A stretch of DNA of 64,000 nt from Cytophagales bacterium (GTDB taxonomy: Bacteria > Bacteroidota > Bacteroidia > Cytophagales > Thermoflexibacteraceae). The DNA lies in contig JAAFKA010000012.1 in assembly GCA_013299115.1 (NCBI GenBank), positions 1 through 64,000 on the forward strand, given 5' to 3'. Below are positions 2,194-64,000 of the stretch, in pieces. A program made the position numbers and the translations under genes. Each line of letters starts with the position of its first letter. Positions within the stretch are counted from its first letter, which is position 1. The notes under the pieces were generated by a model that was not told the DNA's origin, made no database searches, and saw nothing but the letters and a program-made list of their open reading frames with translations.

Positions 2194-5100
2194 TTATTTG
2201 TAATATTCGTTTAAAGTATTATACCCACGCTGCAAAGCATCGTCAATTTCCATTCTTAATTCTGCTTGTAATTGTCGAATTTGATTAACATCTAAAGTGC
2301 CTGCATCAATAAGTCTTTGTAATCTACTTTGTACTGAAGTATTTAATGCAGGGTGATTACCATGAAAAGGTGTTTGCAATGGTATCAGATTGTTAGTGGA
2401 ATGAATATCAAATCCAATATTGTCTAAACTATTTTTTAAATTTTTATACACACCTTGTGGGATAATGTGATGTACTTGTCTTCCTATGGGCGAAACGGCA
2501 AACCGAGTATATACTAGCAATTTAGTCAAAGGAGATAAAGCCAGAGCAACACCCTTTCCGCCAGGTATAGCACCCGCAGTATTAAGAGCCACCCCTGTAG
2601 CCCCCATACTCTCCCCAAAAATATTTTGCCCTGTTGTATAACCAGAATAAGCATTTACAGCAGACCCCGCAGGAATGACATCAAAAACAAACCTACCAAT
2701 ATTAGCAAAAATACTATTTTCATTCCCATTTGCATACGAGTCCCCTGCTCGCATCATACTCCAGAAACTGGCACTGAGCATAGCAAAATCCATTGGAGGG
2801 GATTCTCGGTAGCCAATTACAGTTACTTCGGGCAACGTGCCACCTGTGTATTGAGGTTCACCTCCACCGCCTCCTTGTCCACCGCCTCCTCCTCCACTCC
2901 AACCCCCATCAGCATCCACCTGATTACCTGGGTCATTCCCCATCGCCACATACGGACTCCAATACTGCCCATAAGGGTCGACACTCAACCACCTTGCTAT
3001 ATCCGAGTCATACTGCCTCAACTCAAAACTATTCCAATCCGTTTCCCCATCTTTCTCCGCAAACTCCCCCTGATACCCATACCTATACGCACCCGCACCA
3101 GAACAAGCCGTTTTTGCCACCTTGCCAAAGGGATAGTAGTCTGTCCAAGAGGTTACAGTAAGCTTTTCGGCATTGGGCTTGTGGACTATCTCAAAAGCAT
3201 CGAAGTATGCTGGCTGCTGTTCGTGTTCGTTTACCAAACTGAAACGAAGGAAGCCTGTTTGGGTACACTCGTCACCAAAGTCGATAGGTTCATTGTCCTC
3301 ACTGCCTATTTTGGTAAAGTCATCTTGCGAAGTTACAAAATATTTTCGATAGGCAGGGTTAATTACCTCACCTTTTTCGTTTAAAAGTTCGACTAATAGG
3401 TAAGCCTCGACACTTTCGGTTACAAAAGGTGGAGTTTCAGGTTTGAAATCCGACCTATCGGGTGGCTGCGAGCCACCCGATAGGTTATGCCCAAACTTGC
3501 TAAGTCTTTGAGACTTAGCAAGTCTTAAAGATTTGGTAAGCTGCACCGCCAACGGCACCGCTGCCAGCACGTTGAAAGACAAGCCTTGATTTTCGCCTTG
3601 TGGCAAGAACAACGGCGTGCTGACTGCCAAACCTAAAAGCCCCCCGCCCCAAAGGGGAGTTTTACGCAAGGAGGTAACTCCCCCTTTGGGGGCTGGGGGG
3701 CTTTTTACTCCCCTTTGGGGGCTTTTTAGTTGGGGGCTTCTTACTCCCCCTTCGGGGGCTGGGGGGCTTTCATTTTGCCTTCCCCACTTCGCCCAAACCG
3801 TAGCTGTCCATCTCTCTCCCTTGCGGACGGGGAGGCGAAACTGTGCCACTTTTTGCGGTTGCGGTTGGGGCTGCTGCGGTACAGGGCTTATTTTTAGCGA
3901 AAATTTGCCATCGTGTTTTTGGGCATAGCTCCGCCAAGCATTGCTATTGGAGAAATTGCGGAGGTCGTTGTGGTCTTGTTCCCAGCTTTGGGCATTTTCG
4001 TGTTCCAAGTCCATGGTCTGGTAAGTCTGCTCGGCTTGCTCGTTGTTGCTGCGGTACGTAACCCTCACATTGCCCAAGTGGTCTTTTGCCTCGTAGATGT
4101 AGTCGGCAAAGGCTACGCCCTGCACAGGGCTGTAGGCATTGGGCTGCGGTTTGTCGTAGGTCTGTTGCCAAATACCCACCCTGCTCATACCATACAAAGG
4201 AGTTTCATCCTTTATTTTTCCCCCTTCGGGGGTTAGGGGGCTTTGGGCTTGTTTTTCATAAATCCTTACCACTTGCCCTCCTGCATCGTTTATATACCAC
4301 GTGTGCAAGCCTGTTTGGTAGTTTATTTTCTCCATTCGCTGCCCTTTGTCGTCATAGCGGAAGGTAACTTTTAGCACGTTTTGCCCATCGTGTACGGCTG
4401 TTACCTTGCCTGTTACGTCGTAGGTCAGGCGTATTTCGCTGCCGTTTTTGCTTTCTTTGATTAGTTGCCCTATTTCGTCATAAAAATAGTCTTTGTGAAC
4501 TACATTGTTATTTTTGAGTTGGCTGAGTTGATTAGTTTTTGTACCATCGGCTTTTGTCGCAAAATGGTAGTCATAGTTTGCCTGTATTACGCCGTTGGCA
4601 TCATTCCTTTTCAGGGTTTTAATGTTTCCGTTCAGGTCATAAGTCAGCCCTCCCTCAAAAAAGTTTTGGGTAGTAGAGTTTGTAAAACCATAGTTACCGT
4701 TTGCCCCTGTAAAAGTGCCGTAGTTTGCCTCTTTCAGTTGGTATTTGTGGTCATAAGCATAGCTATACGCCCTTTTTTGGTTGGGGTCGTTTTGGCTCAA
4801 GTTGGCGTTGCTGCCGTAAGCCCAGGCATTGGTGGTGATAGAACCATTGTAAAGGGCTTGGGCGGGGCTGCTTACTGTTGCCATGTTTGCTGCTGCTTCA
4901 AGGCTAACAGGTTGATAGTCGTTTTGGAAGTAACCCAAAATAGAGCCGAAAACATCGGGGGCAAATTGGTTGTTTACACCATCTTTGCCTGGGTCTTGGT
5001 TTTGAGCTAATCCGTTTATGCTTTTTAGCCAGCCTTGCAGCGTATATACGTAGTCTGTGCCTTGCAGTTGGTTGCCAGTTTCCACCCGTTTTAGTCCGCC

Positions 5101-52049: not shown

Positions 52050-54479
52050 ATGTTTAAGACCTCATGCAAAAAGCAAATTTTTTTTTTCAAAGTCTTTACT
52101 TTGTATGCACTGGTAGTTGGTTGGGCAAATGCTCAACCTATTAGCAGGTTTTCGAGCCATATTTTGCCCGAACAACTAAGCAATAGCATTTATTTTTTAG
52201 AAGACTCTACCAATCATTGGCAGTTAGCCGAAATTCTCACTCCTGTTTTGCAAGCAAAGTTTCAACCTTGCCACCAAGCTACACCTAACTTCGGCATTAC
52301 TCCCCACACTGTTTGGCTCAAAATTAACCTCCAACACCAAACGAACAAGGAGTTGGCAATGGAAATTGCAAATCCTACGCTGCAAGAACTCCAACTGTAT
52401 GTGGTCAATCAGGAAGGGAAACTGTTATCTTCTGCACACACAGGTAGTTTGTTGCCATTCAAGCAAAGACCTATTCAAACCAATTTTTTTGTTTTGCCTC
52501 TTCGCAATATCCCTGAAAATCAGCCTTTTACGTGCTACCTAAAAGTAAAAAGTAACTATCCTTTGCAGTTGCCTATTACGATTTCTAACTTAGATAGTAT
52601 GGTAGAAAAGGTTTATTTTCAGGGCTTTTTTCATAGTGCCTATTTTGGATTTATGTTCTTGGCTCTTTGTTTTAGTTTGACTATGTTTTTTTATGTCAAG
52701 GAAACTATTTATATCTATTATTTTCTCTATGTTTTTTTCAATGTGCTTTCTGTTGGGGGCGTAAAAGGCTACAATGCCCAATTTTTATGGTCTGCTTATC
52801 CAATTTTGAATGAAAGAATAATGATTTTTTTGAGTTTGGCAGCTTTATTTGTTATGTTTTTTTCTCATTCCTTCTTGCAAATCACTTCCAAAGATAAAAT
52901 TTACTACCGAATAGGTTGGATGATTGGCGTGGGTTGTCTGTTTACCATTTGCTTGAACTTGTTTATAGACGTAGGCTTGTCTGTCAGTGCAACAGAATTG
53001 CTGGCTATTTTTATTTATCTCTACTTGTTGGTGGTCAGCACAGACAAAACTTTTATTCAAAAACAACCTCATGCCATTTATTATTTCATTGGTGTTAATT
53101 TGTATATTGTTGGCATTGTTTTGTTTTTGATAGTGGTCAATAATGGCTTGCCTCACAACAACTTTACGAGTAGTTTTCCTGAAATTGGCACTGCCGTTGA
53201 GGTTTTGTTTTTCTCTTTTGGCTTGGCAAACAAAATTTTGGTGGAAAGAAATGAAAAAAAGCAAACCACGTTGCAATTAGTAGAAGCCTTGAAAACCAAC
53301 GAACAAATTATAAGGGAACAAAATGAAATGTTGGAAAAAAAGGTAGCCGAAAGAACCGAAGAATTGGAACAAGCAACCAATACTTTGCTCGATACACACT
53401 ACGAATTGCAGTTGCAAATGCTGAAAATTCAGCAACAGAAAGAAGAAATTTTGCAACAAACAGAGGAATTGCAAACGACTAATCAAAAGCTGGTGGAGGT
53501 CAGTCGTTATAGGCAAGCCATGACCAATATGATAGTGCATGACCTCAAAAATCCTCTCAATTTGTTGCTCAATTTGCCCAAACAAGACCCTACTATTCAA
53601 CTGAACAAAGTAAAGCAACAAGGTAGCCAAATGCTGAATCAGGTGTTGAATATTTTGGACTTGCAAAAATATGCCACTACCGAAATGTTGTTAGAACTGC
53701 GACCTTACAATTTAGCCCAAGTGGTGGACAAGGCTTTAGGCGAAGTCGATTTTTTGTATGAACCCAAAGCCTTGCAGGTAATCAAAAATATTAATCCTTT
53801 GCATACAGTAAAGGCTGATGCAGAGATTTTGCACCGAATTTTTGTAAATATTTTGACCAATGCCATTAAATATACGCCGATTAACGGAACTATTACCCTA
53901 AGCAGCGAAAACCATTCGGCTACCGAACAGCCCATTGCAAATGACGTGCTGACTCCTGCCACGCCTTTGCTCAAAATTAGCATTGCAGATACAGGACAAG
54001 GTATTCCTGCGGACAAAAAACACCTCGTTTTCGAACCTTTTGGGCAGGTAGATGCCAAACATTCGGGTAGTGTCCGTTCTACGGGCTTGGGGCTGTCGTT
54101 TTGCAAAATGGCAGTGGAAGCCCACTACGGCAGCATAGCTCTCGAAAGTGAAGTGGGCAAAGGCACTACTTTTTGGTTTACGCTGCTGCAAGTGCCACAA
54201 GAAAATGCAAGTATTTTTACGCAACCCATAGAGAGTCAAAAAAGACTCCAAGCAAGCATCACGACCATAGACGCTGAAACGCAGACCTTGTTGCAACCTT
54301 ATTACGAACAGTTTAGCCACCTCATGGTCTATGAAAGTTCGGAGGTAGAAACTCTGATGGAGAGTTTGCCCGCCAACAACAATCCTGTTTTTGTAGATTG
54401 GAAAAAAGCTATGCAAAAAGCAATAGAGCAAATGAACGAGGCAAGGTACAGCGAATTGGTGGCTTTGTTGAAAAAGTAA
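52050..54479 (+). CDS. 7TM-DISM sensor histidine kinase (809 aa)
   Basis: Signal peptide, then a DISM extracellular domain (~residues 40-185, with TPHTVWLKINLQHQTNKELAM), seven membrane segments (~residues 190-395), a long coiled coil (NEQIIREQNEMLEKKVAERTEELEQ region), the HisKA phospho-acceptor IVHDLKNPLN (His ~497), then HATPase boxes LTNAIKYTP, DTGQGIP and GLGLSF. The C-terminal ~90 residues are an extra helical segment after the ATPase and resemble a receiver-less tail. No response regulator gene is next to it. It probably senses ligands at the cell surface, perhaps with the lipoprotein encoded 21 bases upstream. Confidence 0.9.
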   Translation: MFKTSCKKQIFFFKVFTLYALVVGWANAQPISRFSSHILPEQLSNSIYFLEDSTNHWQLAEILTPVLQAKFQPCHQATPNFGITPHTVWLKINLQHQTNKELAMEIANPTLQELQLYVVNQEGKLLSSAHTGSLLPFKQRPIQTNFFVLPLRNIPENQPFTCYLKVKSNYPLQLPITISNLDSMVEKVYFQGFFHSAYFGFMFLALCFSLTMFFYVKETIYIYYFLYVFFNVLSVGGVKGYNAQFLWSAYPILNERIMIFLSLAALFVMFFSHSFLQITSKDKIYYRIGWMIGVGCLFTICLNLFIDVGLSVSATELLAIFIYLYLLVVSTDKTFIQKQPHAIYYFIGVNLYIVGIVLFLIVVNNGLPHNNFTSSFPEIGTAVEVLFFSFGLANKILVERNEKKQTTLQLVEALKTNEQIIREQNEMLEKKVAERTEELEQATNTLLDTHYELQLQMLKIQQQKEEILQQTEELQTTNQKLVEVSRYRQAMTNMIVHDLKNPLNLLLNLPKQDPTIQLNKVKQQGSQMLNQVLNILDLQKYATTEMLLELRPYNLAQVVDKALGEVDFLYEPKALQVIKNINPLHTVKADAEILHRIFVNILTNAIKYTPINGTITLSSENHSATEQPIANDVLTPATPLLKISIADTGQGIPADKKHLVFEPFGQVDAKHSGSVRSTGLGLSFCKMAVEAHYGSIALESEVGKGTTFWFTLLQVPQENASIFTQPIESQKRLQASITTIDAETQTLLQPYYEQFSHLMVYESSEVETLMESLPANNNPVFVDWKKAMQKAIEQMNEARYSELVALLKK

Positions 54480-54863
54480 AAAAATGGCAAGGAAAAACAA
54501 AAAATTACTTTTTTAAAGAATTTTTTTTATATTTGGGGCTACTTTGTGAATACTTAATTTAAACATACTCAGTATTGTAGCAACTAATCTTATTTAAGAA
54601 AAGTTATGCAATAAATTAAGCACATAGATAACACTGATTAAGCAGATTCTAAGGATAAAAAATTTAAAATCAGTGTTTTATCTGTATAATCTGCGTTATC
54701 TGTGTGCAATACTGTATATAGTCCAACTAAATAAATCCTGTAAATAGAAAACTAAATTGTTACCTTAAAGCAATGAAAATTTATTTCAAAACATCAACAA
54801 TCAAAACTTTTGCTGAATAAACATCTTTCAACTTATTTTATTTTGTAAACAAATACAAACACA
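54480..54863. other. 384-bp gene-free stretch with one palindromic element
   Basis: No gene is supported; a 15-codon frame (54774-54821) has no support beyond its own start. It holds the 88-nt element at 54620-54707. A TATTTTG close to the -7 consensus lies about 22 bases before the first methylase ATG and could be its promoter. Confidence 0.6.
54620..54707. repeat. 88-nt long-stem palindromic element
   Basis: Starts GCACATAGATAACACTGATT and ends TCTGCGTTATCTGTGTGC. The arms pair over most of their length. Second member of the family seen at 24651-24736. Confidence 0.7.
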
Positions 54864-56303
54864 ATGGAAAAATATGTAATCAATGAGAAGGAGGAAATGG
54901 AGGGGGTGGCGGAGCAGCAGATGAGGTTGTGGGGGAGGGAAAGTTTTGTCATTGATACAGATAAAAATTTACAATCTATTGATTTACAAGATTTTGTAAT
55001 AGGAAATTTATCAGACGAAGTTGTTAAAATTTATCAAAACATAGAAAAAAAACTATTTGTTGATTACAGTTATTTTCAGATTGAGCAAGATACACCCGTA
55101 AATTTTAAGCAATCTATGAAATTGGCAAGGCATAGATGGTTTCCCTATAAAGAAGGTTTTTCGCCACTTTTTGTAAAATCTTTTATTACACGATTTACAG
55201 ATAACAAAAATATAAAAATTTTAGATGTTTTTTCAGGTGTAGGAACAACTGTATTACAGGCTGGCTTAATGGGGTTTGGCGGAGTCGGTTTTGATGTAAA
55301 CCCTCTTTCCAATTTTATTGCACAAACTAAATCAATTAATTTAAGTGAGTTGCAACAAAAAGAATTTGTTAATTTAATTGATAAATTTGAAAAATCGGAT
55401 TTGAAAGAAATTGCAGAAAAACCTGATAATCAAACTATTATTTCGTATTTCTCTGAAATAAATATGCAATGGTTATTGAAATTAAAACATTTTTATTTGC
55501 AAATAGAAAAACCTTATCAAGATTTGTTTAAGTTAGTTTTTTTGCGAAGTATTGAACCATTATCTACACATAGAAAAGATGGAAACGGAGTAAAACGCAA
55601 GACTAATATAAATACTATTCAGAACTTTATATCAGAAAAAGATTTTAAAGATTATATTATTTCGTTTTTAAAACAACTTTTGATAGATATTCAAAATGTT
55701 TTTAATAAAGGAAATTCTAACTTTTATTTGCAAAGTTCATTAGATAGCAAAAGTTTCAAAAATCATACTTTTAATGCTGTATTGACTTCGCCACCTTATG
55801 CGAATTGTTTTGACTACAGTAAAGTTTATTTATCAGAATTGTGGCTTGGTGATTTTTTTGTTGATAAAAGTTCTCAAATAGAATTTAGAGCAAAATCTGT
55901 TCGCAGCCACGTACACGCAACATGGGAAGAAAGATTTACAGATAAAGGTAGTAAAATAGTCAATGAATTGATTTATCCACATTTGAAAGTTCAAAATCTA
56001 TGGTCTAATAAAATTCCGTTGATGTTATCGGGTTATTTTAAAGATATTGGGCAAATGTTAGAAAATATCTATCCTTGTTTAGAAAATAACAGCCCTATTG
56101 GTTTGGTGGTTGGTAATTCTGTTTATGACGGTATTCCTGTAGCAACAGACTTGTTAATTTGTGATATTGCAGAAAAAATAGGTTACAGTGTGGAAAAAAT
56201 AGAAGTCTATCGTAAACTTTCTACTTCATCACAACAAACAATAAAAGTCCAAAATAAGGAGTATTTAAGAGAAAGTTTGGTAGTTTTACGAAAAATAACC
56301 TAA
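54864..56303 (+). CDS. DNA methyltransferase A (TSPPY type) of the defence island
   Basis: 479 residues. A SAM site LDVFSGVGTTVLQ (~residue 120) precedes the catalytic TSPPYANCFDYSK (~307), so motif I comes before motif IV. The TSPPY motif fits N4-cytosine or N6-adenine methylases. The N-terminus MEKYVINEKEE is identical to that of the Eco57I-like methylase 2.8 kb further on, down to the DNA, and is followed by a G-rich stretch (54891-54945) in an otherwise AT-rich gene. The next gene starts 1 base after the stop and encodes a related enzyme. The two may modify the two strands of one asymmetric site; this is inference. Confidence 0.75.
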   Translation: MEKYVINEKEEMEGVAEQQMRLWGRESFVIDTDKNLQSIDLQDFVIGNLSDEVVKIYQNIEKKLFVDYSYFQIEQDTPVNFKQSMKLARHRWFPYKEGFSPLFVKSFITRFTDNKNIKILDVFSGVGTTVLQAGLMGFGGVGFDVNPLSNFIAQTKSINLSELQQKEFVNLIDKFEKSDLKEIAEKPDNQTIISYFSEINMQWLLKLKHFYLQIEKPYQDLFKLVFLRSIEPLSTHRKDGNGVKRKTNINTIQNFISEKDFKDYIISFLKQLLIDIQNVFNKGNSNFYLQSSLDSKSFKNHTFNAVLTSPPYANCFDYSKVYLSELWLGDFFVDKSSQIEFRAKSVRSHVHATWEERFTDKGSKIVNELIYPHLKVQNLWSNKIPLMLSGYFKDIGQMLENIYPCLENNSPIGLVVGNSVYDGIPVATDLLICDIAEKIGYSVEKIEVYRKLSTSSQQTIKVQNKEYLRESLVVLRKIT

Positions 56304-56304
56304 A

Positions 56305-57579
56305 ATGCAATTAGAAAAAGGACACATACAGAGTTTTTATACACCTTCAACACTCAAATATGGAGAGGTTGTAGAGTTTCCAAGCACTCGAAAAATAAAA
56401 CAATATACACATAGAATTTATAACCGTTATCCTGCACGCAGCATTTGCACAGTGCCAAGAAGTATATTACAAGAACTCAAAGAACAAAACAAAAATTTTA
56501 AGGAATTAAATATTTTGGACAGTTTTATGGGTTCAGGAACAACCGCAGTAGAAACAGCTCTGCAAGGAATGAAAATTTATGGTGTTGAATTAGATACTTT
56601 TGCACGTTTAATTGCAGAAGTTAGCATAAATACTTATAATCCAACAGAATTAGAAAGATTAGTAAAAACCTACGATACAATTATAGCAAATTGGAAAGAT
56701 TTTGAACCTGACGAAAACTATATACCAAAGTTAAATAATATTACTTATTGGTTTGATGAAGTAAACTTCAAAGAATTATTGCAATTAAAGAAAGCAATTT
56801 ATCAACTATGCGAAAATAAAGATGATTTAGATTTTTTGAAAATTACTTTTGCAGACATCATAAGACCTTGTTCTAAAATGGAAAGGCAGTCTACAAAACC
56901 CTATATTTCTAAAAAATTTATTAAAATTCCGCACAATGTTCATAATACTTTTGTAAAAAGTTTTAAGACACATTTTCAAGCATTGCAAGAATTTTCTTCA
57001 TTTGTGAGTTATCAAAAAAATAGTATAAATTGGTTAGGAAATGATGCAACTAATTTTAGTGGTAATAATCTCATAGACATTGCCATTACCTCACCACCTT
57101 ATGCAAATGCTCTTGATTATACACATTGTATAAAAATAGAAAGTGCTTGGGTGGATTGTATAGATAATGAATTGTTGCCAATTATAAGAAATAATCAAGT
57201 GGGCTACCAAACAAGAGGTAAAAGACCTGTTTCGGAGGTTGTAATGCAAAAAATTAGTATGTATTTTGATTTGATTTTTTCGCAAGACAAAAATAAAGCA
57301 AAAGCATTAGCTGCTTATTTTGAAGATATGTATGCCAATCTTTTTTGTGTTTATAAAGCCTTAAAAAATGGTGGTTGCTATCATATCATTATTGGCGATA
57401 ATGTGGTAAAAAATGTAAAAATTCCTACACACGAAATCATAGCAAAATTAGCCCAAGAGGTTGGTTTTGAATGGATTAACCTTTATGAATATAAAATAAA
57501 AGACCATAGAACTTCTATACCAAGAAATGGCAATGGTGGTAAAATTGAGTATGAAAAAGTAATTGTTTTACAAAAATGA
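56305..57579 (+). CDS. DNA methyltransferase B (TSPPY type) of the defence island
   Basis: 424 residues, same architecture as the preceding methylase: SAM site LDSFMGSGTTAVETAL (~residue 71) and TSPPYANALDYTH (~261), plus a conserved-looking region around CSKMERQSTKPYI before the catalytic motif. It follows methylase A with 1 base between stop and start, and it overlaps the next small frame by ATGA. Likely a second subunit or second-strand enzyme. Base composition is AT-rich throughout. Confidence 0.75.
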   Translation: MQLEKGHIQSFYTPSTLKYGEVVEFPSTRKIKQYTHRIYNRYPARSICTVPRSILQELKEQNKNFKELNILDSFMGSGTTAVETALQGMKIYGVELDTFARLIAEVSINTYNPTELERLVKTYDTIIANWKDFEPDENYIPKLNNITYWFDEVNFKELLQLKKAIYQLCENKDDLDFLKITFADIIRPCSKMERQSTKPYISKKFIKIPHNVHNTFVKSFKTHFQALQEFSSFVSYQKNSINWLGNDATNFSGNNLIDIAITSPPYANALDYTHCIKIESAWVDCIDNELLPIIRNNQVGYQTRGKRPVSEVVMQKISMYFDLIFSQDKNKAKALAAYFEDMYANLFCVYKALKNGGCYHIIIGDNVVKNVKIPTHEIIAKLAQEVGFEWINLYEYKIKDHRTSIPRNGNGGKIEYEKVIVLQK

Positions 57580-57698
57580 TAATTCATAGCAACATAGATA
57601 CGCTGTTGAGTGGAAAATTTTTGCGGTGGTCTGAAAATATATTAGACAAATTTTTTGCATTAGAGAATAATAAAATTTTGCTATTTTTGTGCAACTAA
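57576..57698 (+). pseudogene. 40-codon stump, probable remnant of a lost restriction gene
   Basis: An ATG overlapping the methylase B stop (ATGA) opens a 40-residue frame: MIIHSNIDTLLSGKFLRWSE, then a short helix ending in LLFLCN. Translational coupling suggests that a longer gene once began here, such as an endonuclease paired with the two methylases. The stop lies 15 bases before the start of the next methylase, whose first 11 codons copy those of methylase A. I read it as a truncation made at that junction. Confidence 0.4.
57654..57689 (+). promoter_or_regulatory. Candidate promoter for the Eco57I-like methylase gene
   Basis: TTTG, then 24 bases, then TATTTTTG (57682-57689, full -7 match). 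Spacing is longer than usual. The ATG follows 24 bases downstream. Confidence 0.35.
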
Positions 57699-57712
57699 AA
57701 TTAAAAAACACA

Positions 57713-59896
57713 ATGGAAAAATATGTAATCAATGAGAAGGAGGAGGAGTTTTTGGAAAATGGTATGATGATAGAAGAAGCAAGTGTGATGTATGGTTTGG
57801 ATTTATTTGCAAAAAATAATAGCGAAAATACAGAAATAGAAATAAATAGATTTGCAGATATAATTTATAAAAATTATTTACTGATTAAAAAAGCAGTAGA
57901 TGAAAATAACCTATCTCCCAAAATAACTATGTTTGTGAATGTAATAATTTTGTTGAAAATAGTGGGAAGTTTTAGAAAAAATGTAAACGGAATAGCACAA
58001 AACCAATTACTAAAAGAATTTATGATTGCCGAATGTAACATAACATTTGATAGTAGTATGACTTTTAATATTGATACAGTAAAAAAAATATCATTAAATA
58101 TAGGATTTGATATTGATACAGTTGTACTTGATAAAATTATAGATAATATAAACGCAATGAACATACCTTTGCTTGTAAATTATCATTCTGGCAATATAAA
58201 TAGAATATTTGGGCAAGTTTTTGAAAAAATTATTACAAAAAAAGAAATTGGGGCTTATTATACAGGCGAAAATACCACAAAATATATCACTGAAAATACA
58301 GTTATTCCAAGTTGTTTGATGCAATGGGCAAAATATGACATTGTTTTAAATAAATATTTAGCAGACTACAAAGCACAAAATGGCTTATCAATTATAGAAA
58401 ATTCAATAAAAAACAATATTTCTTTAAAAAAATTATTATTTGACCTGATACAAAAATTTGATAATTGGGCTTTGCTTAAAACCATTCAAAATATCAAAAT
58501 TATAGATATTTCTTGCGGTTCTGGTTCTTTTATTTTTTCGTCTTACTATTTGCTAAAAGAAATTTTAGGGCAAATAAAATCAGAGGAAATAGACTATGAT
58601 TATTCTAAAATTTTTGAAAATAATTTGTTTGGCATTGATATAGACGAGGAGGCTATACATATTTTGAAGTTTAGAATTTTAATAGAAAATGTGATAGAAA
58701 CAAAAACTTCAACAACTTATTTAGAACTAATAAATAATTTTATTGTAGGTAATAGCCTTATTCATAATAAATCACGAAAAAAAGATTTATTATTTTCTGA
58801 TAATAACAAAAAAAATCAATCTATTTTTGAAAGTAATTTGTGCTTAGTAAATATCGTAGATGGCGGAGGTTTTGATGTTGTTTTAGGTAATCCGCCTTAT
58901 TTAGAATATAAAAATATTACATCTTACAAAATAGAAAATTATAGAAGTGAAAAATGTAATAATTTGTATGCTTTTGTGCTGGAAAAAAACTTTGATATTT
59001 TGAAAGAGGAGGGACATTTAGGAATGATTATTCCCATTTCTTATATTTCGACAAAAAGAATGAAACCTATTCGCAGTTATTTGATAGAGAACTCAAATTA
59101 TCAATTTTGCTCGAATTATGCAGACAGACCTTCTTGTTTATTTAATGGAGTCCACCAAAAATTAAATATTATTCTGTTAGAAAAGCAAACCTCACAAAGC
59201 ACCAAAAAAGTATATACTACAAATTATTTGCATTGGTACGCAGAAAGTAAAGACGAAATTTATAATGATATTCATTATAAAGAAAATAAATTTGTTACTT
59301 CGGATTTTTTATTTAAAATTGGAAATCAAATAGAGGAAAGTATTATTCAAAAATTATGTTTTAGTTCGAGAAAATCATTAGTCGAAAATTTTGTTCCTCA
59401 TAGTAATCATACTGTTTGGCTCAATATGCGTATGACTTTTTGGAATAAATCATTTATGAAACCCCAAAAATCAAATGAATATAAGGCTTTTTTCTTTCAA
59501 TCAAGTGAAAATGCAATGCTATTTTCAGCATTGTTAAACTCCAATATTTTCTTTTTTTATTGGGAATGTATATCTGATGTTTGGCATATCACTTTAAAAG
59601 ATTTGTCCTGTCTGCGAGTTGATTTTGCCTCTTTTAGTGTGGAGCAAAAAGAGCAAATTTGTAATTTGTATCAAGAATTAGAAACAAACCTTGAGTTAAA
59701 TAAAAAGAAAATAGATAGCAAACAGACAGAATTTGAATATCAACACAAAAAAGATAAAATTTTAATTGATAAAATAGATTTGTCTTTTAAAGAATATTTT
59801 TATTTTACAGAAGTAGAAATAGAATATTTGAAAAATTATCAATTAAAGTTTAGGTTAAATGGCGAATTATCAAATTATTTAGAAAAGCAGGAATAA
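57713..59896 (+). CDS. Eco57I-like N6-adenine DNA methyltransferase (727 aa)
   Basis: The start is taken at MEKYVINEKEE (57713). An Eco57I-type core follows: GAYYTGENTTKYI, motif I DISCGSGSFIFSS (~residue 263), motif IV VVLGNPPYLEYKNI (~391) and the downstream GHLGMIIPISYIS segment. The C-terminal part (residues ~480-727) would be the recognition domain. No nuclease motif is seen, so cleavage probably rests with another protein. Strongly AT-rich. It overlaps the C5 methylase start by one base (TAATG), so both are translated together. The leader identity with methylase A suggests a recombination joint. Confidence 0.8.
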   Translation: MEKYVINEKEEEFLENGMMIEEASVMYGLDLFAKNNSENTEIEINRFADIIYKNYLLIKKAVDENNLSPKITMFVNVIILLKIVGSFRKNVNGIAQNQLLKEFMIAECNITFDSSMTFNIDTVKKISLNIGFDIDTVVLDKIIDNINAMNIPLLVNYHSGNINRIFGQVFEKIITKKEIGAYYTGENTTKYITENTVIPSCLMQWAKYDIVLNKYLADYKAQNGLSIIENSIKNNISLKKLLFDLIQKFDNWALLKTIQNIKIIDISCGSGSFIFSSYYLLKEILGQIKSEEIDYDYSKIFENNLFGIDIDEEAIHILKFRILIENVIETKTSTTYLELINNFIVGNSLIHNKSRKKDLLFSDNNKKNQSIFESNLCLVNIVDGGGFDVVLGNPPYLEYKNITSYKIENYRSEKCNNLYAFVLEKNFDILKEEGHLGMIIPISYISTKRMKPIRSYLIENSNYQFCSNYADRPSCLFNGVHQKLNIILLEKQTSQSTKKVYTTNYLHWYAESKDEIYNDIHYKENKFVTSDFLFKIGNQIEESIIQKLCFSSRKSLVENFVPHSNHTVWLNMRMTFWNKSFMKPQKSNEYKAFFFQSSENAMLFSALLNSNIFFFYWECISDVWHITLKDLSCLRVDFASFSVEQKEQICNLYQELETNLELNKKKIDSKQTEFEYQHKKDKILIDKIDLSFKEYFYFTEVEIEYLKNYQLKFRLNGELSNYLEKQE

Positions 59897-61065
59897 TGAA
59901 TGTTATAGATTTGTTTTCAGGTGTTGGTGGATTTTCAACTGGCTTGAGAAATGCAGGATTTACTATTGTGTTAGCAAATGAAATGGATAGCACAATAGCA
60001 TACTCCTACAAACAAAATCATATAGATACTGTAATGATAAATGCAGATATTGCTGCTTTTTTAGGTGATTATGAAAATGTTTTAACTAAAAATTTGGTGT
60101 TGCAAAATACCAATATAGATGTTTTTCGTAATAATATTTCAAAGATAGATTTAATCGTAGGGGGACCTCCTTGTCAAGGCTTTAGTATGGCAGGTGGGCG
60201 AATACGCAAAGGAAACGAATTTATAAATGACCCTCGCAATGATTTATTTAAACAATATTTCAAAACTATTCAACAATTTGAACCTAAATTTTTTATTTTT
60301 GAAAATGTTACAGGAATTTTAAGTATGGATAATGGGGCAGTGATAGAAGAAATTGAAAAACTTTTTGAAACAAGTTCTAATTTTAAATTTGGGAGATATT
60401 ATATTCAAAAAAAAGTTTTTAGTGCTGATGATTACGGAGTTCCTCAAAAAAGGAAACGGTTAATTATTGTAGGTTCTAAAATTCCTTTTGATATAAACAA
60501 AGAAATTGATAATTTATTTAAAAAAATGCCTTTGGATAAACAAAGTATTTTTTCATCTAAGCCAAATATTCACGATGCAATAGCCGATTTATCATTTTCT
60601 GATATTGAAAATTATTTAGATGCCCAATTATACTTAAAAAAACCTACAACTTATTATCAAAAATTAATGAGAAGTAAGTCTGAAAAAATTTATAATCATA
60701 TTCCTCATAATCATTCTGATTTGGTTATTGACAGAATAAAAAGAATAAAAAATGGTCAAAATTGGCAAGACCTTGCAGAAAGTGAAAATATAAAATCTGT
60801 TCATAGTGGGGCTTATGGTAGATTAAGTTGGAATGATTTGTCTGTTACAATAACAACAAGATTTGATACACCTTCGGCAGGTCGTTTTATTCACCCTGAT
60901 TTAGACAGGAATATAACATCGAGAGAAGCAGCACGTTTGCAATCTTTTCCAGATGATTTTATTTTTTATGGGAACAAAACCTCTATTTGTAAACAAATTG
61001 GAAACGCAGTGCCACCATTATTGGCTGAATTCTTAGGGTATTTAATCAAAAACATAGATAAATAA
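59896..61065 (+). CDS. DNA (cytosine-5)-methyltransferase
   Basis: 389 residues in the standard C5-methylase order: motif I DLFSGVGGFSTGL, motif IV with the catalytic Cys VGGPPCQGFSMAGG (~residue 91), motif VI FFIFENVTGIL, motif VIII-like KRKRLIIVGSK, then the target domain and motif X QIGNAVPPLLAEF. It would protect or mark the site recognised by the LlaJI-like/McrB-like pair downstream, as in LlaJI systems (which have two C5 methylases; only one is seen here). The gene starts on the last base of the preceding stop codon and ends 1 base before the McrB-like start. Confidence 0.93.
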   Translation: MNVIDLFSGVGGFSTGLRNAGFTIVLANEMDSTIAYSYKQNHIDTVMINADIAAFLGDYENVLTKNLVLQNTNIDVFRNNISKIDLIVGGPPCQGFSMAGGRIRKGNEFINDPRNDLFKQYFKTIQQFEPKFFIFENVTGILSMDNGAVIEEIEKLFETSSNFKFGRYYIQKKVFSADDYGVPQKRKRLIIVGSKIPFDINKEIDNLFKKMPLDKQSIFSSKPNIHDAIADLSFSDIENYLDAQLYLKKPTTYYQKLMRSKSEKIYNHIPHNHSDLVIDRIKRIKNGQNWQDLAESENIKSVHSGAYGRLSWNDLSVTITTRFDTPSAGRFIHPDLDRNITSREAARLQSFPDDFIFYGNKTSICKQIGNAVPPLLAEFLGYLIKNIDK

Positions 61066-61066
61066 A

Positions 61067-62896
61067 ATGACATTAACGGAAAGAATTAATCAAATAAAGT
61101 CTTTACAAAAAGATGAATGTTGGTATATCACAAAACAATCTTTGTCATTTAAAGATTTGTGTTTTGCAGCAAAAATTGTAGAAGATTTTAAGCTACAACA
61201 AAATGTAGTCAATTTTGAAACCTTTTTTGCCGAAAAAGCTGCTATTTATGGAATAACACCAACCCATAGAATGGCGAATAACTGTTATTATATTGGTCTA
61301 TTAAATAAAAATGGTGCGCAATACAAAGATGCAACGCTAACAGAGGCATACTTTGCTATTAAGGCAAGTTGTAAAGGAGATTTTAGTAGAACAGAATTAT
61401 ACAAAGACCTTTTAATTTCACAAATCGAAAAAGTATTTATTTCTAATGCTATCGATGAGGAAAATGCAGGCTTGCGTAAATCCTACAAAATAAATCCTGC
61501 ATTTTATTTGGCTAAAATTCTCTTGGGTTTAGGTGATATTACAGGAGATTACTCAATTACGCAAAACGAATTTTATAGATTTGTAGGTACGTCTTACAAT
61601 TATAGTTTTTACTTATCAACTATTGAACTTATTATCGAGCAACGCAAAAACAAACAATTAAATGATGATTTAGCATATATTGACAATTATTACAATGATT
61701 TGCAAGATGTTACGGTTGATAATTTTGCAAGCAACAGAATACATCTGTTATTGACTAATTTGCCTTATTTTGAAATGGTAAACGGTAAAATTTCTTTTGT
61801 TAAATATTTTATCAAAGAAATGAAACATAAATTAGCTGATTATGAATGTAATTTGAATGATAATTATTTTACCATTGAGTACCTAAATTCTAACAAAGGG
61901 CTGCCAATTCTAAGTGAAACTAAAAAGCCAAAACTCAATATTTCCAAACTTACCCCTCCCCAAACCCTCATCTTCTTCGGTTGCCCAGGCACAGGCAAAT
62001 CTCACCGCGTAACCGAAAAAGTGAAGGCAGCAGGTTTTACGGACTATAAAGTTACGTTTCACCCCGAATATGACTATGGAAACTTTGTGGGTGCATACAA
62101 GCCCTACACCGAACCCGACAAACGAATAACCTATCAGTTTGTGCCACAGGCTTTTATCAGGGCTTACGTGGCAGCGTGGAAAAACTTAGACAAACCCTAT
62201 TGTTTGACGATTGAGGAAATCAATCGGGGAAATTGTGCAGCCATTTTTGGCGACATTTTTCAGTTGTTAGACAGAGATAAAACAGGTTTTTCGCAATACA
62301 CCATTCAGGCAGACACCGACATTGCTAATTATCTGAAACAAGAACTTGCCGACACCGAATATGCCTCGCACCTCCAAGCCTTGTGTGCAGAAAGGGAAAT
62401 TACAGCCCTTGCAAACCCTTACGAAATGTTGTGTTTGCCACCCAACTTGTCTTTGTTTGCCACCATGAACACCTCCGACCAGTCCCTTTTTCCGATGGAC
62501 AGTGCTTTCAAACGCCGTTGGCAGTGGCAATATGTGCCGATAGACTATGCAGATGCCGAACAATTTATGCTAAAAATTGGCGAAAAAACTTATCATTGGG
62601 CTGCTTTCTTACAGACGATTAACGACAAAATTTATAAAATAACGGAAAGTGAAGACAAGCAAATGGGCAACCGTTTTGTAAATCCAAACGACAAAATAAT
62701 AGACGAAAATATTTTTGTAAACAAAGTTTTGTTTTACTTGTGGTTTGATATTTTCAAAAACGAGGACACCAAAAATCCAAATTATATTTTCAAAACTCCT
62801 GATAATCAATTACTTAAATATGTAGATTTGTTTTTGGCAGACGGCAAACCAAATGGAGAGAAAATAGAACAGTTTTTGGAATATAATAAACTGTAG
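61067..62896 (+). CDS. McrB-like AAA+ restriction subunit with foreign N-terminal half
   Basis: 609 residues. The C-terminal half is the McrB-type motor: Walker A FGCPGTGKSHRV (~304), YDYGNFVGAYKP, Walker B-like LTIEEINRGNCAAIFGDIFQLLDR (~385) with the McrB NRGN feature, TMNTSDQS sensor (~467) and Arg finger FKRRW (~482). The N-terminal 285 residues have no motif I recognise and would be the DNA-recognition domain. Base composition switches near 61930: AT-rich before, host-like after. McrB motors use GTP and drive a partner nuclease; here that is the downstream LlaJI-like gene. Confidence 0.88.
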   Translation: MTLTERINQIKSLQKDECWYITKQSLSFKDLCFAAKIVEDFKLQQNVVNFETFFAEKAAIYGITPTHRMANNCYYIGLLNKNGAQYKDATLTEAYFAIKASCKGDFSRTELYKDLLISQIEKVFISNAIDEENAGLRKSYKINPAFYLAKILLGLGDITGDYSITQNEFYRFVGTSYNYSFYLSTIELIIEQRKNKQLNDDLAYIDNYYNDLQDVTVDNFASNRIHLLLTNLPYFEMVNGKISFVKYFIKEMKHKLADYECNLNDNYFTIEYLNSNKGLPILSETKKPKLNISKLTPPQTLIFFGCPGTGKSHRVTEKVKAAGFTDYKVTFHPEYDYGNFVGAYKPYTEPDKRITYQFVPQAFIRAYVAAWKNLDKPYCLTIEEINRGNCAAIFGDIFQLLDRDKTGFSQYTIQADTDIANYLKQELADTEYASHLQALCAEREITALANPYEMLCLPPNLSLFATMNTSDQSLFPMDSAFKRRWQWQYVPIDYADAEQFMLKIGEKTYHWAAFLQTINDKIYKITESEDKQMGNRFVNPNDKIIDENIFVNKVLFYLWFDIFKNEDTKNPNYIFKTPDNQLLKYVDLFLADGKPNGEKIEQFLEYNKL

Positions 62897-63008
62897 AACG
62901 GACTTTAGTCCGTTTTTTTCATTCACATTTTGGAATATAACAAACTGTAGAACGGACTTTAGTCCGTTTTTTCATTCACAATACAAACGGACTAAAGTCC
63001 GTTCTACA
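62892..63008. repeat. BIME-like repeat with tandem-duplicated gene end (117 bp)
   Basis: Two direct hairpin units TGTAGAACGGA-CTTTAG-TCCGTTTT (62892 and 62945) and one inverted copy ending in CTACA. The first unit overlaps the mcrB-like stop. The second comes with a ~53-bp copy of the gene end (GGAATATAA...), so the gene's 3' end is duplicated in tandem. Confidence 0.75.
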
Positions 63009-63023
63009 GAAATACGTTTTCTT

Positions 63024-64000
63024 ATGAAAATCCTGATAGAAAAATATCATTATCCTGCCCTTACCTTACAAGGCTTGTTGCCCGACCATTACCTCACTTT
63101 TCAAAAACAAGGGCTGGCTTCGGTAGAGTTGGTGGGCTACTACAACAATTTTGAGAACAACGAAACGGTGCTAATTTTACCTAAGATTTTTGAGGAGCAA
63201 GGCAAGATATTTTCGTCTATTGCCCCCGAAAGTTTTGTAAACGAAGATGCTTTGACGGTGCTGAAAAACCACGACAAAACCAAAACCGAAATTGATTTTG
63301 TCTATCGTTTTGCGTTGGTGTTTTACTTGTCTTTGCGTGAGTTTCAGCACAGAAATCCCGACAATAGCATAACGAGCCAAGAAAACCTAAAAAATATTAT
63401 TTCCAACATAGAAAACACAGATTTTAGCGAATTGGATTTGATTTTTAGCTTGTTGCGTTTTTATCAGGAAAATAGAGAATTGATATTGTTTAAGCAAAAA
63501 ATGGCTGAAAATCAGCATTTTAAAAAATCAAATTGGGCAAAAACTATCCGCAAGCAAACTGCCATTTTACAAGAAGACGCACAGCAACACACGCAAACCA
63601 TTTATTTGCAAACCTCCCAAAAAGAGAAATTGCAAGACAATGAAAATGAACTGTTGGCTATCTTTTTTTCGGTTTTGCACCGTTTCCGCACCGCATATGG
63701 CTTTAACATTCATATAGAAAACCTAACACACTTATCGGGTGGCTCAGAGCCACCCGATAAGTACAGGCACGAAAAGTCGGATTTTGACCGCAAAGCCTTG
63801 CGGACTTTAAAGCAAATTCGCCACCAATATTTTCAAGACAAGTTCAAAAGGTTGCTTACTTTGCTCTTGGCATATTTTGAAAAACGGAGTGTGGGCAGTG
63901 CCAAAACAGGCAAAGAGGAGTTTCTGTTGTGCCAATTTTACAACCTCGTTTTTGAGGACATGATAGACAATTTATTGTCAGATACCAACGTAGCCAAAGG
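63024..64000 (+). CDS. LlaJI-like restriction endonuclease, partner of McrB-like motor (partial, runs off window)
   Basis: At least 325 residues from ATG at 63024 (MKILIEKYHYPALTLQGLLP). The order McrB-like motor then this gene is that of LlaJI R1-R2 and McrBC. The charged helical region with NFENNETVLILPKIFE and HRFRTAYGFNIHIENL fits the LlaJI endonuclease family (PF09563) in my reading; the PD-(D/E)XK site would lie beyond the end of the window. A 33-nt palindrome at 63730-63762 is translated in frame as LSGGSEPPD. Composition is host-like, unlike the four methylases upstream. Confidence 0.7.
   Translation, partial: MKILIEKYHYPALTLQGLLPDHYLTFQKQGLASVELVGYYNNFENNETVLILPKIFEEQGKIFSSIAPESFVNEDALTVLKNHDKTKTEIDFVYRFALVFYLSLREFQHRNPDNSITSQENLKNIISNIENTDFSELDLIFSLLRFYQENRELILFKQKMAENQHFKKSNWAKTIRKQTAILQEDAQQHTQTIYLQTSQKEKLQDNENELLAIFFSVLHRFRTAYGFNIHIENLTHLSGGSEPPDKYRHEKSDFDRKALRTLKQIRHQYFQDKFKRLLTLLLAYFEKRSVGSAKTGKEEFLLCQFYNLVFEDMIDNLLSDTNVAK
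63730..63762. repeat. 33-nt palindrome translated in frame (LSGGSEPPD), partner of 3453-3485
   Basis: 15-nt arms ACTTATCGGGTGGCT and complement around CAG. Differs from the copy in the RHS gene by one arm base on each side (C:G to T:A), so pairing is kept, and in the centre. Confidence 0.85.

What the first reader, a model, noticed from the sequence alone, without database searches (positions are those of the whole stretch)
54864..57748. Two different methylases share an identical 11-codon leader at DNA level
The bases from CACAATGG through the 11 codons of MEKYVINEKEE are the same before methylase A (54864) and before the Eco57I-like methylase (57713), although the proteins are otherwise unrelated. 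A shared start segment of that length in two separate families points to recombination through a common expression leader, or to a mobile leader module. It contains GAGAAGGAGGA, a strong Shine-Dalgarno-like stretch inside the coding region.
Basis: seen in the sequence. Interest (0 to 1): 0.6.

Follow-up and report, generated by a model that had tools for sequence, protein, structure and literature searches.

The report
Two methylase pairs, one copied start
In a mosaic bacterial anti-phage restriction locus, a 39-base stretch holding the start of a gene occurs twice, once ahead of each of two unrelated DNA-methylase gene pairs, which looks like a scar of cut-and-paste gene assembly and not like a widespread mobile leader.

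Summary
AAACACAATGGAAAAATATGTAATCAATGAGAAGGAGGA occurs exactly twice (54857-54895, 57706-57744) and nowhere else in the 5.5-Mb genome at up to 3 mismatches. Identity is 39 nt: 7 nt upstream, 10 codons and 2 bases.

The leader is not ancestral to either family. Methylase A orthologues align only from about residue 32-57, and C homologues only over their C-terminal half or so. It is not a widespread module: only stray partial matches in 395 same-class genomes, none in 12 family relatives or viral contigs. The internal GGAGG is unlikely to be a ribosome-binding site: 0 of 33 ATG-started genes here have an upstream Shine-Dalgarno motif.

The setting is a LlaJI-like (McrBC-related) R-M locus that looks mosaic. 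A-B is a pair found elsewhere directly before McrB-McrC. C-D is another pair found with McrB/LlaJI on lactobacillus plasmids. The McrB-like gene has a C-D-type N-terminal domain on a Bacteroidota-type motor. Third-position GC steps at A codon 26 and McrB codon 269.

Best reading: a translation start copied by recombination while methylase cassettes were assembled. Deletion between copies would leave C in frame (inferred). Moderate interest.

The parts
54857..54895 (+). Leader copy 1 (39 nt): 7 nt 5' of ATG, ATG, 10 codons + 2 nt; start of methylase A
   Evidence: exact repeat
57706..57744 (+). Leader copy 2 (39 nt), identical; start of Eco57I-like methylase C
54864..56303 (+). A: 479-aa DNA methyltransferase (SPPY motif, probably m4C); conserved body from about residue 50
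   Evidence: orthologues 43-47% identical lack the leader
54864..54938 (+). First 25 codons of A: G-rich, GC3 0.71 against 0.17 for the rest of A
   Evidence: changepoint codon 26, 0 of 2000 permutations
56305..57579 (+). B: 424-aa N6_N4_Mtase (SPPY), remote paralogue of A; A-B adjacent in other bacteria
57713..59896 (+). C: 727-aa Eco57I/PglX-like adenine methyltransferase (NPPY); only methyltransferase domains matched in Pfam
59896..61065 (+). D: 389-aa m5C methyltransferase; follows C here and on lactobacillus plasmids
61067..61957 (+). E N-terminal part (aa 1-297): predicted DNA-recognition domain, AT-rich, related only to the McrB-like protein of Lactiplantibacillus/Latilactobacillus plasmids
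61958..62896 (+). E C-terminal part (aa 298-609): AAA/GTPase motor, GC3 0.42-0.44, 44-48% identical to Bacteroidota McrB-like proteins
63024..64000 (+). F: McrC/LlaJI-R2-like nuclease subunit, 566 aa, runs past the window end to 64724
   Evidence: 35% to L011/L013 McrC-like proteins; L011 protein hits Pfam RE_LlaJI
54939..61868 (+). Low-GC3 core (0.17) from A codon 26 to E codon 268
   Evidence: segmentation
54378..54457 (+). 3' end of the upstream histidine-kinase gene; a decayed direct copy (85.5%) lies at 64761-64842, just past F, so the two bracket the locus

Best explanation
The 39-nt repeat is a translation-initiation segment (short 5' UTR, AUG, first ten codons) present once at the head of each methylase pair (A-B and C-D) of a LlaJI-like, McrBC-related restriction-modification locus. 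It reached the second gene by a recombination or short duplication event while the locus was assembled from cassettes: an in-frame fusion at the start codon that gave an unrelated methylase a working local start. Shown: the exact repeat and its uniqueness in the genome; absence of the leader from orthologues; A-B and C-D as separate pairs elsewhere; homology and composition steps in E; GC3 step in A. Inferred: the order of events, that copy 1 is the older one (its G-rich composition runs 14-15 codons past the repeat in A, but stops with it in C), that the segment gives similar translation of both pairs, and that a crossover between the copies would remove A-B and leave leader-C in frame. System mechanism (inferred from LlaJI): A-B and C-D each protect one site, one enzyme per strand; the E N-terminal domain recognises the unmodified C-D site, and the E motor and F nuclease cut.
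For: Exact 39-nt in-register repeat with unrelated flanks. Only two copies in the genome. A orthologues begin with other, shorter N-termini. A-B pair in ten loci of several phyla, directly followed by McrB and McrC in L011 and L013. C-D pair with an E-type N-terminal domain, AAA motor and LlaJI nuclease on L. plantarum and L. curvatus plasmids. E aa 1-279 match only those plasmid proteins (29-32%), while E aa 298+ match Bacteroidota McrB at 44-48%. GC3 segmentation 0.71 | 0.17 | 0.43 with boundaries at A codon 26 and E codon 268-269. Locus absent from 12 family relatives and bracketed by a duplicated histidine-kinase 3' end. LlaJI genetics: R1 N-terminal half unique with GTPase C-terminal half, R2 has the PD...D/ExK centre (PMC1459862).
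Against: No strain with the pre-fusion arrangement or the donor was found, so direction and order are inferred. GC3 steps between methylases plus N-terminal domain and the motor plus McrC also occur, more weakly, in some other Bacteroidota LlaJI-type loci (clear in L013, L045, L047; weak or absent in L011, L044, L046, L048), so composition alone does not prove import here. The GC3 step at C codon 15 is only suggestive (p 0.09). No expression data.
Confidence: 0.62

Rival explanations
1. Functional shared regulatory element: the identical start region is kept by selection so that both methylase mRNAs respond alike to one regulator (an RNA, a protein or methylation), ensuring that modification precedes restriction.
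For: It sits at the translation start of both methylase pairs and of no other gene. Both copies have an A at -3, a positive initiation determinant in Flavobacterium (PMC6847099), and a weakly structured context (z 0.2 and 0.7). C follows a 133-nt gap and may have its own promoter.
Against: No other LlaJI-like locus examined has a start-site repeat. No conserved structure or inverted repeat. A recent copy needs no selection to be identical.
Confidence: 0.17
2. Recombination or cassette-exchange site: the 39-nt direct repeats bound a 2.85-kb A-B cassette that was inserted by single crossover of a circle at the leader and can be excised in the same way, switching the modification pattern.
For: Direct repeats flank exactly A-B plus its downstream gap, and deletion would restore an in-frame leader-C gene. 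R-M loci that shuffle through direct repeats and circular intermediates are known (pneumococcal tvr, PMC6265443).
Against: No recombinase gene is seen between the repeats or elsewhere in the A-F locus. No empty-site strain was found, and 39 bp is short for RecA-dependent exchange.
Confidence: 0.15
3. The leader is ancestral and conserved in both methylase families.
For: None found.
Against: A orthologues have unrelated N-termini, C homologues align only over the C-terminal part (19, 22), and the degenerate leader pattern finds only stray partial matches in 395 class genomes (15).
Confidence: 0.02
4. Chance or assembly artefact.
For: The genome is a draft of 74 contigs.
Against: Both copies lie in intact reading frames with distinct unique flanks. 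A 39-nt exact match by chance is about 1e-9.
Confidence: 0.02

Closest known systems
LlaJI restriction-modification system (Lactococcus lactis; with BsuMI and LlaI)
   Same: Two methylases with an McrB-like subunit (unique N-terminal half, GTPase C-terminal half) and a PD...D/ExK subunit (PMC1459862). E and F match this architecture.
   Different: Here there are four methylases in two pairs of different chemistry (by motif two m4C, one m6A, one m5C) and a shared 39-nt start segment on both pairs.
Lactiplantibacillus/Latilactobacillus plasmid loci (L032, L043)
   Same: C-D pair, E-type N-terminal domain, AAA motor, LlaJI-family nuclease.
   Different: No A-B pair and no leader; the motor is less similar to E (33-34%); D is split there.
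Hymenobacter/Cytophagales A-B-McrB-McrC loci (L011, L013)
   Same: A, B, motor and McrC 35-50% identical.
   Different: No C-D, unrelated McrB N-terminal domain, no leader, no repeat.
Pneumococcal tvr/SpnIV shuffling locus (PMC6265443)
   Same: Direct repeats in an R-M locus that could allow excision.
   Different: Type I hsdS shuffling with a dedicated recombinase; none seen here.

Membership tests
LlaJI-like (McrBC-related) R-M system | McrB-like subunit with P-loop motor in the C-terminal half and a distinct N-terminal domain | tested here: met
   AAA_5 Pfam hit at 301-484, P-loop GCPGTGKS at about aa 305, distinct N-terminal domain
LlaJI-like (McrBC-related) R-M system | Second subunit with PD...D/ExK nuclease centre | tested here: inconclusive
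   F is 35% identical to the L011 protein, which hits RE_LlaJI; F itself has no significant Pfam hit; a PD...DSK-like stretch is seen by eye only
LlaJI-like (McrBC-related) R-M system | Linked methyltransferases | tested here: met
   A, B, C, D in tandem upstream
LlaJI-like (McrBC-related) R-M system | Restriction of unmodified DNA | not testable with these tools
   needs phage plating or cleavage assays
Mobile leader module | Copies in front of other genes in this or other genomes | tested here: not met
   only two copies in the genome; only stray partial matches in 395 class genomes; none in family, viral or phage sequences
Type IIG (Eco57I-like) fused restriction-methylation enzyme, for C | N-terminal nuclease domain fused to the methylase | tested here: inconclusive
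   C (727 aa) matches the last third of an 1100-aa IIG profile and only methylase domains in Pfam; no nuclease domain recognised, structure not predicted

The most novel reading that the evidence does not exclude
The 39-nt start segment is a standard socket at which methylase pairs of McrBC-type R-M systems are swapped in and out in frame, while the matching McrB recognition domain is exchanged at the boundary of its motor domain, so that specificity and protection move as one cassette onto a fixed motor and nuclease.
Probability: 0.15. Interest if true: 0.75.

Novelty: new variant of a known kind. Interest (0 to 1): 0.42.

Why it matters
Changing the specificity of an R-M system is dangerous unless methylase and nuclease recognition change together. 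This locus looks like a snapshot of how that can happen: methylase pairs joined at a common start, and an McrB gene whose recognition half matches one pair while its motor half belongs to another lineage. If confirmed, it would extend the known exchange of recognition domains in Type I systems to McrBC-type systems. The repeat also makes a simple prediction, in-frame loss of A-B, that one PCR can test.

Tried and rejected
Mobile leader: searched the own genome, 12 family relatives, 395 class genomes, viral contigs and phages; only stray partial matches outside the two copies. Ancestral leader: orthologue N-termini compared, rejected. Internal Shine-Dalgarno start: 0 of 33 ATG-started genes have one upstream, and GGAGG lies 2 nt before ATG 54897, too close. 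RNA structure: no more stable than shuffles. Start-site repeats in other LlaJI-type loci: none among those examined. Bacteroidota promoter motif TAnnTTTG: not enriched upstream of genes in this window, so no promoter is claimed. A donor gene elsewhere in the genome for A's G-rich N-terminus: none. A second McrB motor in the genome: none.

Full report
Observation. The sequence was read directly and searched for repeats. AAACACAATGGAAAAATATGTAATCAATGAGAAGGAGGA stands at 54857-54895 and again at 57706-57744, start to start 2849 nt. Identity starts 7 nt before each ATG and stops 32 nt into each gene, that is 10 codons and 2 bases. Amino acid 11 is still E in both, but its codon differs (GAA/GAG). 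On both sides the DNA is unrelated. The genome (5.5 Mb, 74 contigs) holds no other copy at up to 3 mismatches, either of 32 nt or of the first 22 coding bases.

Is it ancestral? No. Relatives of A in Hymenobacter, Cytophagales, alphaproteobacteria, a planctomycete and others are 43-47% identical, but the matches begin at A residue 32-57 and those proteins start with short unrelated N-termini. Relatives of C align from about residue 380 (in local comparison from 263 or 278). A degenerate pattern for the leader peptide finds only stray 3-mismatch matches in 395 genomes of the class and nothing in 12 family relatives (DNA pattern), viral contigs or phages (no meaningful match).

What the genes are. 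A and B are related methyltransferases (SPPY motif by eye; Pfam N6_N4_Mtase, below its cut-off for A). C is an Eco57I/PglX-like adenine methyltransferase without a recognised nuclease domain. D is an m5C methyltransferase. E is McrB-like with an AAA_5 motor. F (63024-64724, past the window end) is 35% identical to the McrC-like proteins of L011 and L013, of which the L011 one hits Pfam RE_LlaJI. This is the architecture of LlaJI, in which the N-terminal half of R1 is unique, its C-terminal half is a GTPase, and R2 carries the PD...D/ExK centre (PMC1459862).

Two methylase pairs. A-B is an adjacent pair in ten loci of several phyla. In L011 and L013 it is directly followed by McrB-like and McrC-like genes with no C or D. 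C-D is a pair on conjugative plasmids of Lactiplantibacillus and Latilactobacillus, near an McrB-like gene and a LlaJI-family nuclease, without A-B. In the window each pair begins with one copy of the leader.

A chimeric McrB. E residues 1-279 match only the five lactobacillus plasmid proteins among 72,556 plasmids (29-32%). Residues 298 onward match Bacteroidota McrB motors at 44-48% and the lactobacillus motor at only 33-34%. Third-position GC, segmented along all codons of A-F, gives three blocks: 54867-54936 at 0.71, 54939-61868 at 0.17, 61871-64719 at 0.43. Within single genes the changepoints at A codon 26 and E codon 269 were reached in 0 of 2000 permutations; C codon 15 has p 0.09; B and D show none. 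The E step lies close to the homology switch. As a control, seven other loci were measured: a step in the same direction is strong in L013, clear in L045 and L047, and weak or absent in four others. It may therefore be a recurrent feature of such loci, and composition alone is not proof of import.

Whole-locus footprint. A decayed direct copy (85.5% over 83 columns) of the 3' end of the upstream histidine-kinase gene (54378-54457) lies just after F at 64761-64842. Outside F there is also an inverted copy of a dispersed repeat that precedes A. With the absence of A and F from 12 family relatives, this suggests that the whole locus was acquired.

Mechanism. Most likely the leader is the start of one gene that was copied in front of the other when cassettes were joined. 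Copy 1 may be the older one, since its unusual G-rich composition runs on for 14-15 codons in A but ends with the repeat in C. Its use is probably plain: a translation start. The internal GGAGG is unlikely to recruit ribosomes: none of 33 ATG-started genes in this window has such a motif upstream, as reported for Bacteroidetes (PMC6847099). The phylum of this organism is inferred from its relatives and from this feature; it was not named by the tools. A crossover between the copies would delete A-B and leave C in frame; whether this happens is untested, and no recombinase was found in the locus. The idea that each pair protects an asymmetric site, one enzyme per strand, and that E reads the C-D site, is inferred from LlaJI and from the association of the E N-terminal domain with C-D.

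Verdict. The larger finding is a mosaic LlaJI-like locus whose recognition and modification parts appear to have been exchanged on a retained motor and nuclease. New variant of a known kind; moderate interest.

Noticed in passing
54378-54457 and 64761-64842 (beyond the window, L035): A decayed direct copy (85.5%) of the 3' end of the histidine-kinase gene lies just after the McrC-like gene, so the whole R-M locus is bracketed by a direct duplication, like an old insertion footprint.
   Followed up: partly
54590-54707 and 65111-65235 (inverted): A dispersed, partly palindromic repeat of about 120 nt (69 matches to the query region in this genome, 66-93% identity apart from the query itself and the leader) stands on both sides of the R-M locus in inverted orientation.
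   Followed up: partly
62888-63009: A palindromic REP-like element (TAGAACGGACTTTAGTCCGTT) stands three times between the McrB-like and McrC-like genes; the genome has 87 copies at up to 1 mismatch, often in inverted pairs.
   Followed up: partly
L013, L045, L047 compared with the window: In several Bacteroidota LlaJI-type loci the methylases and the McrB N-terminal half have lower third-position GC than the motor half and McrC, which hints at repeated exchange of the specificity part.
   Followed up: partly
1201-1395 and 3008-3202: Exact matches of 24 nt or more recur at a 1807-nt offset within or beside a very large minus-strand gene, probably internal repeats of a long protein.
   Followed up: no
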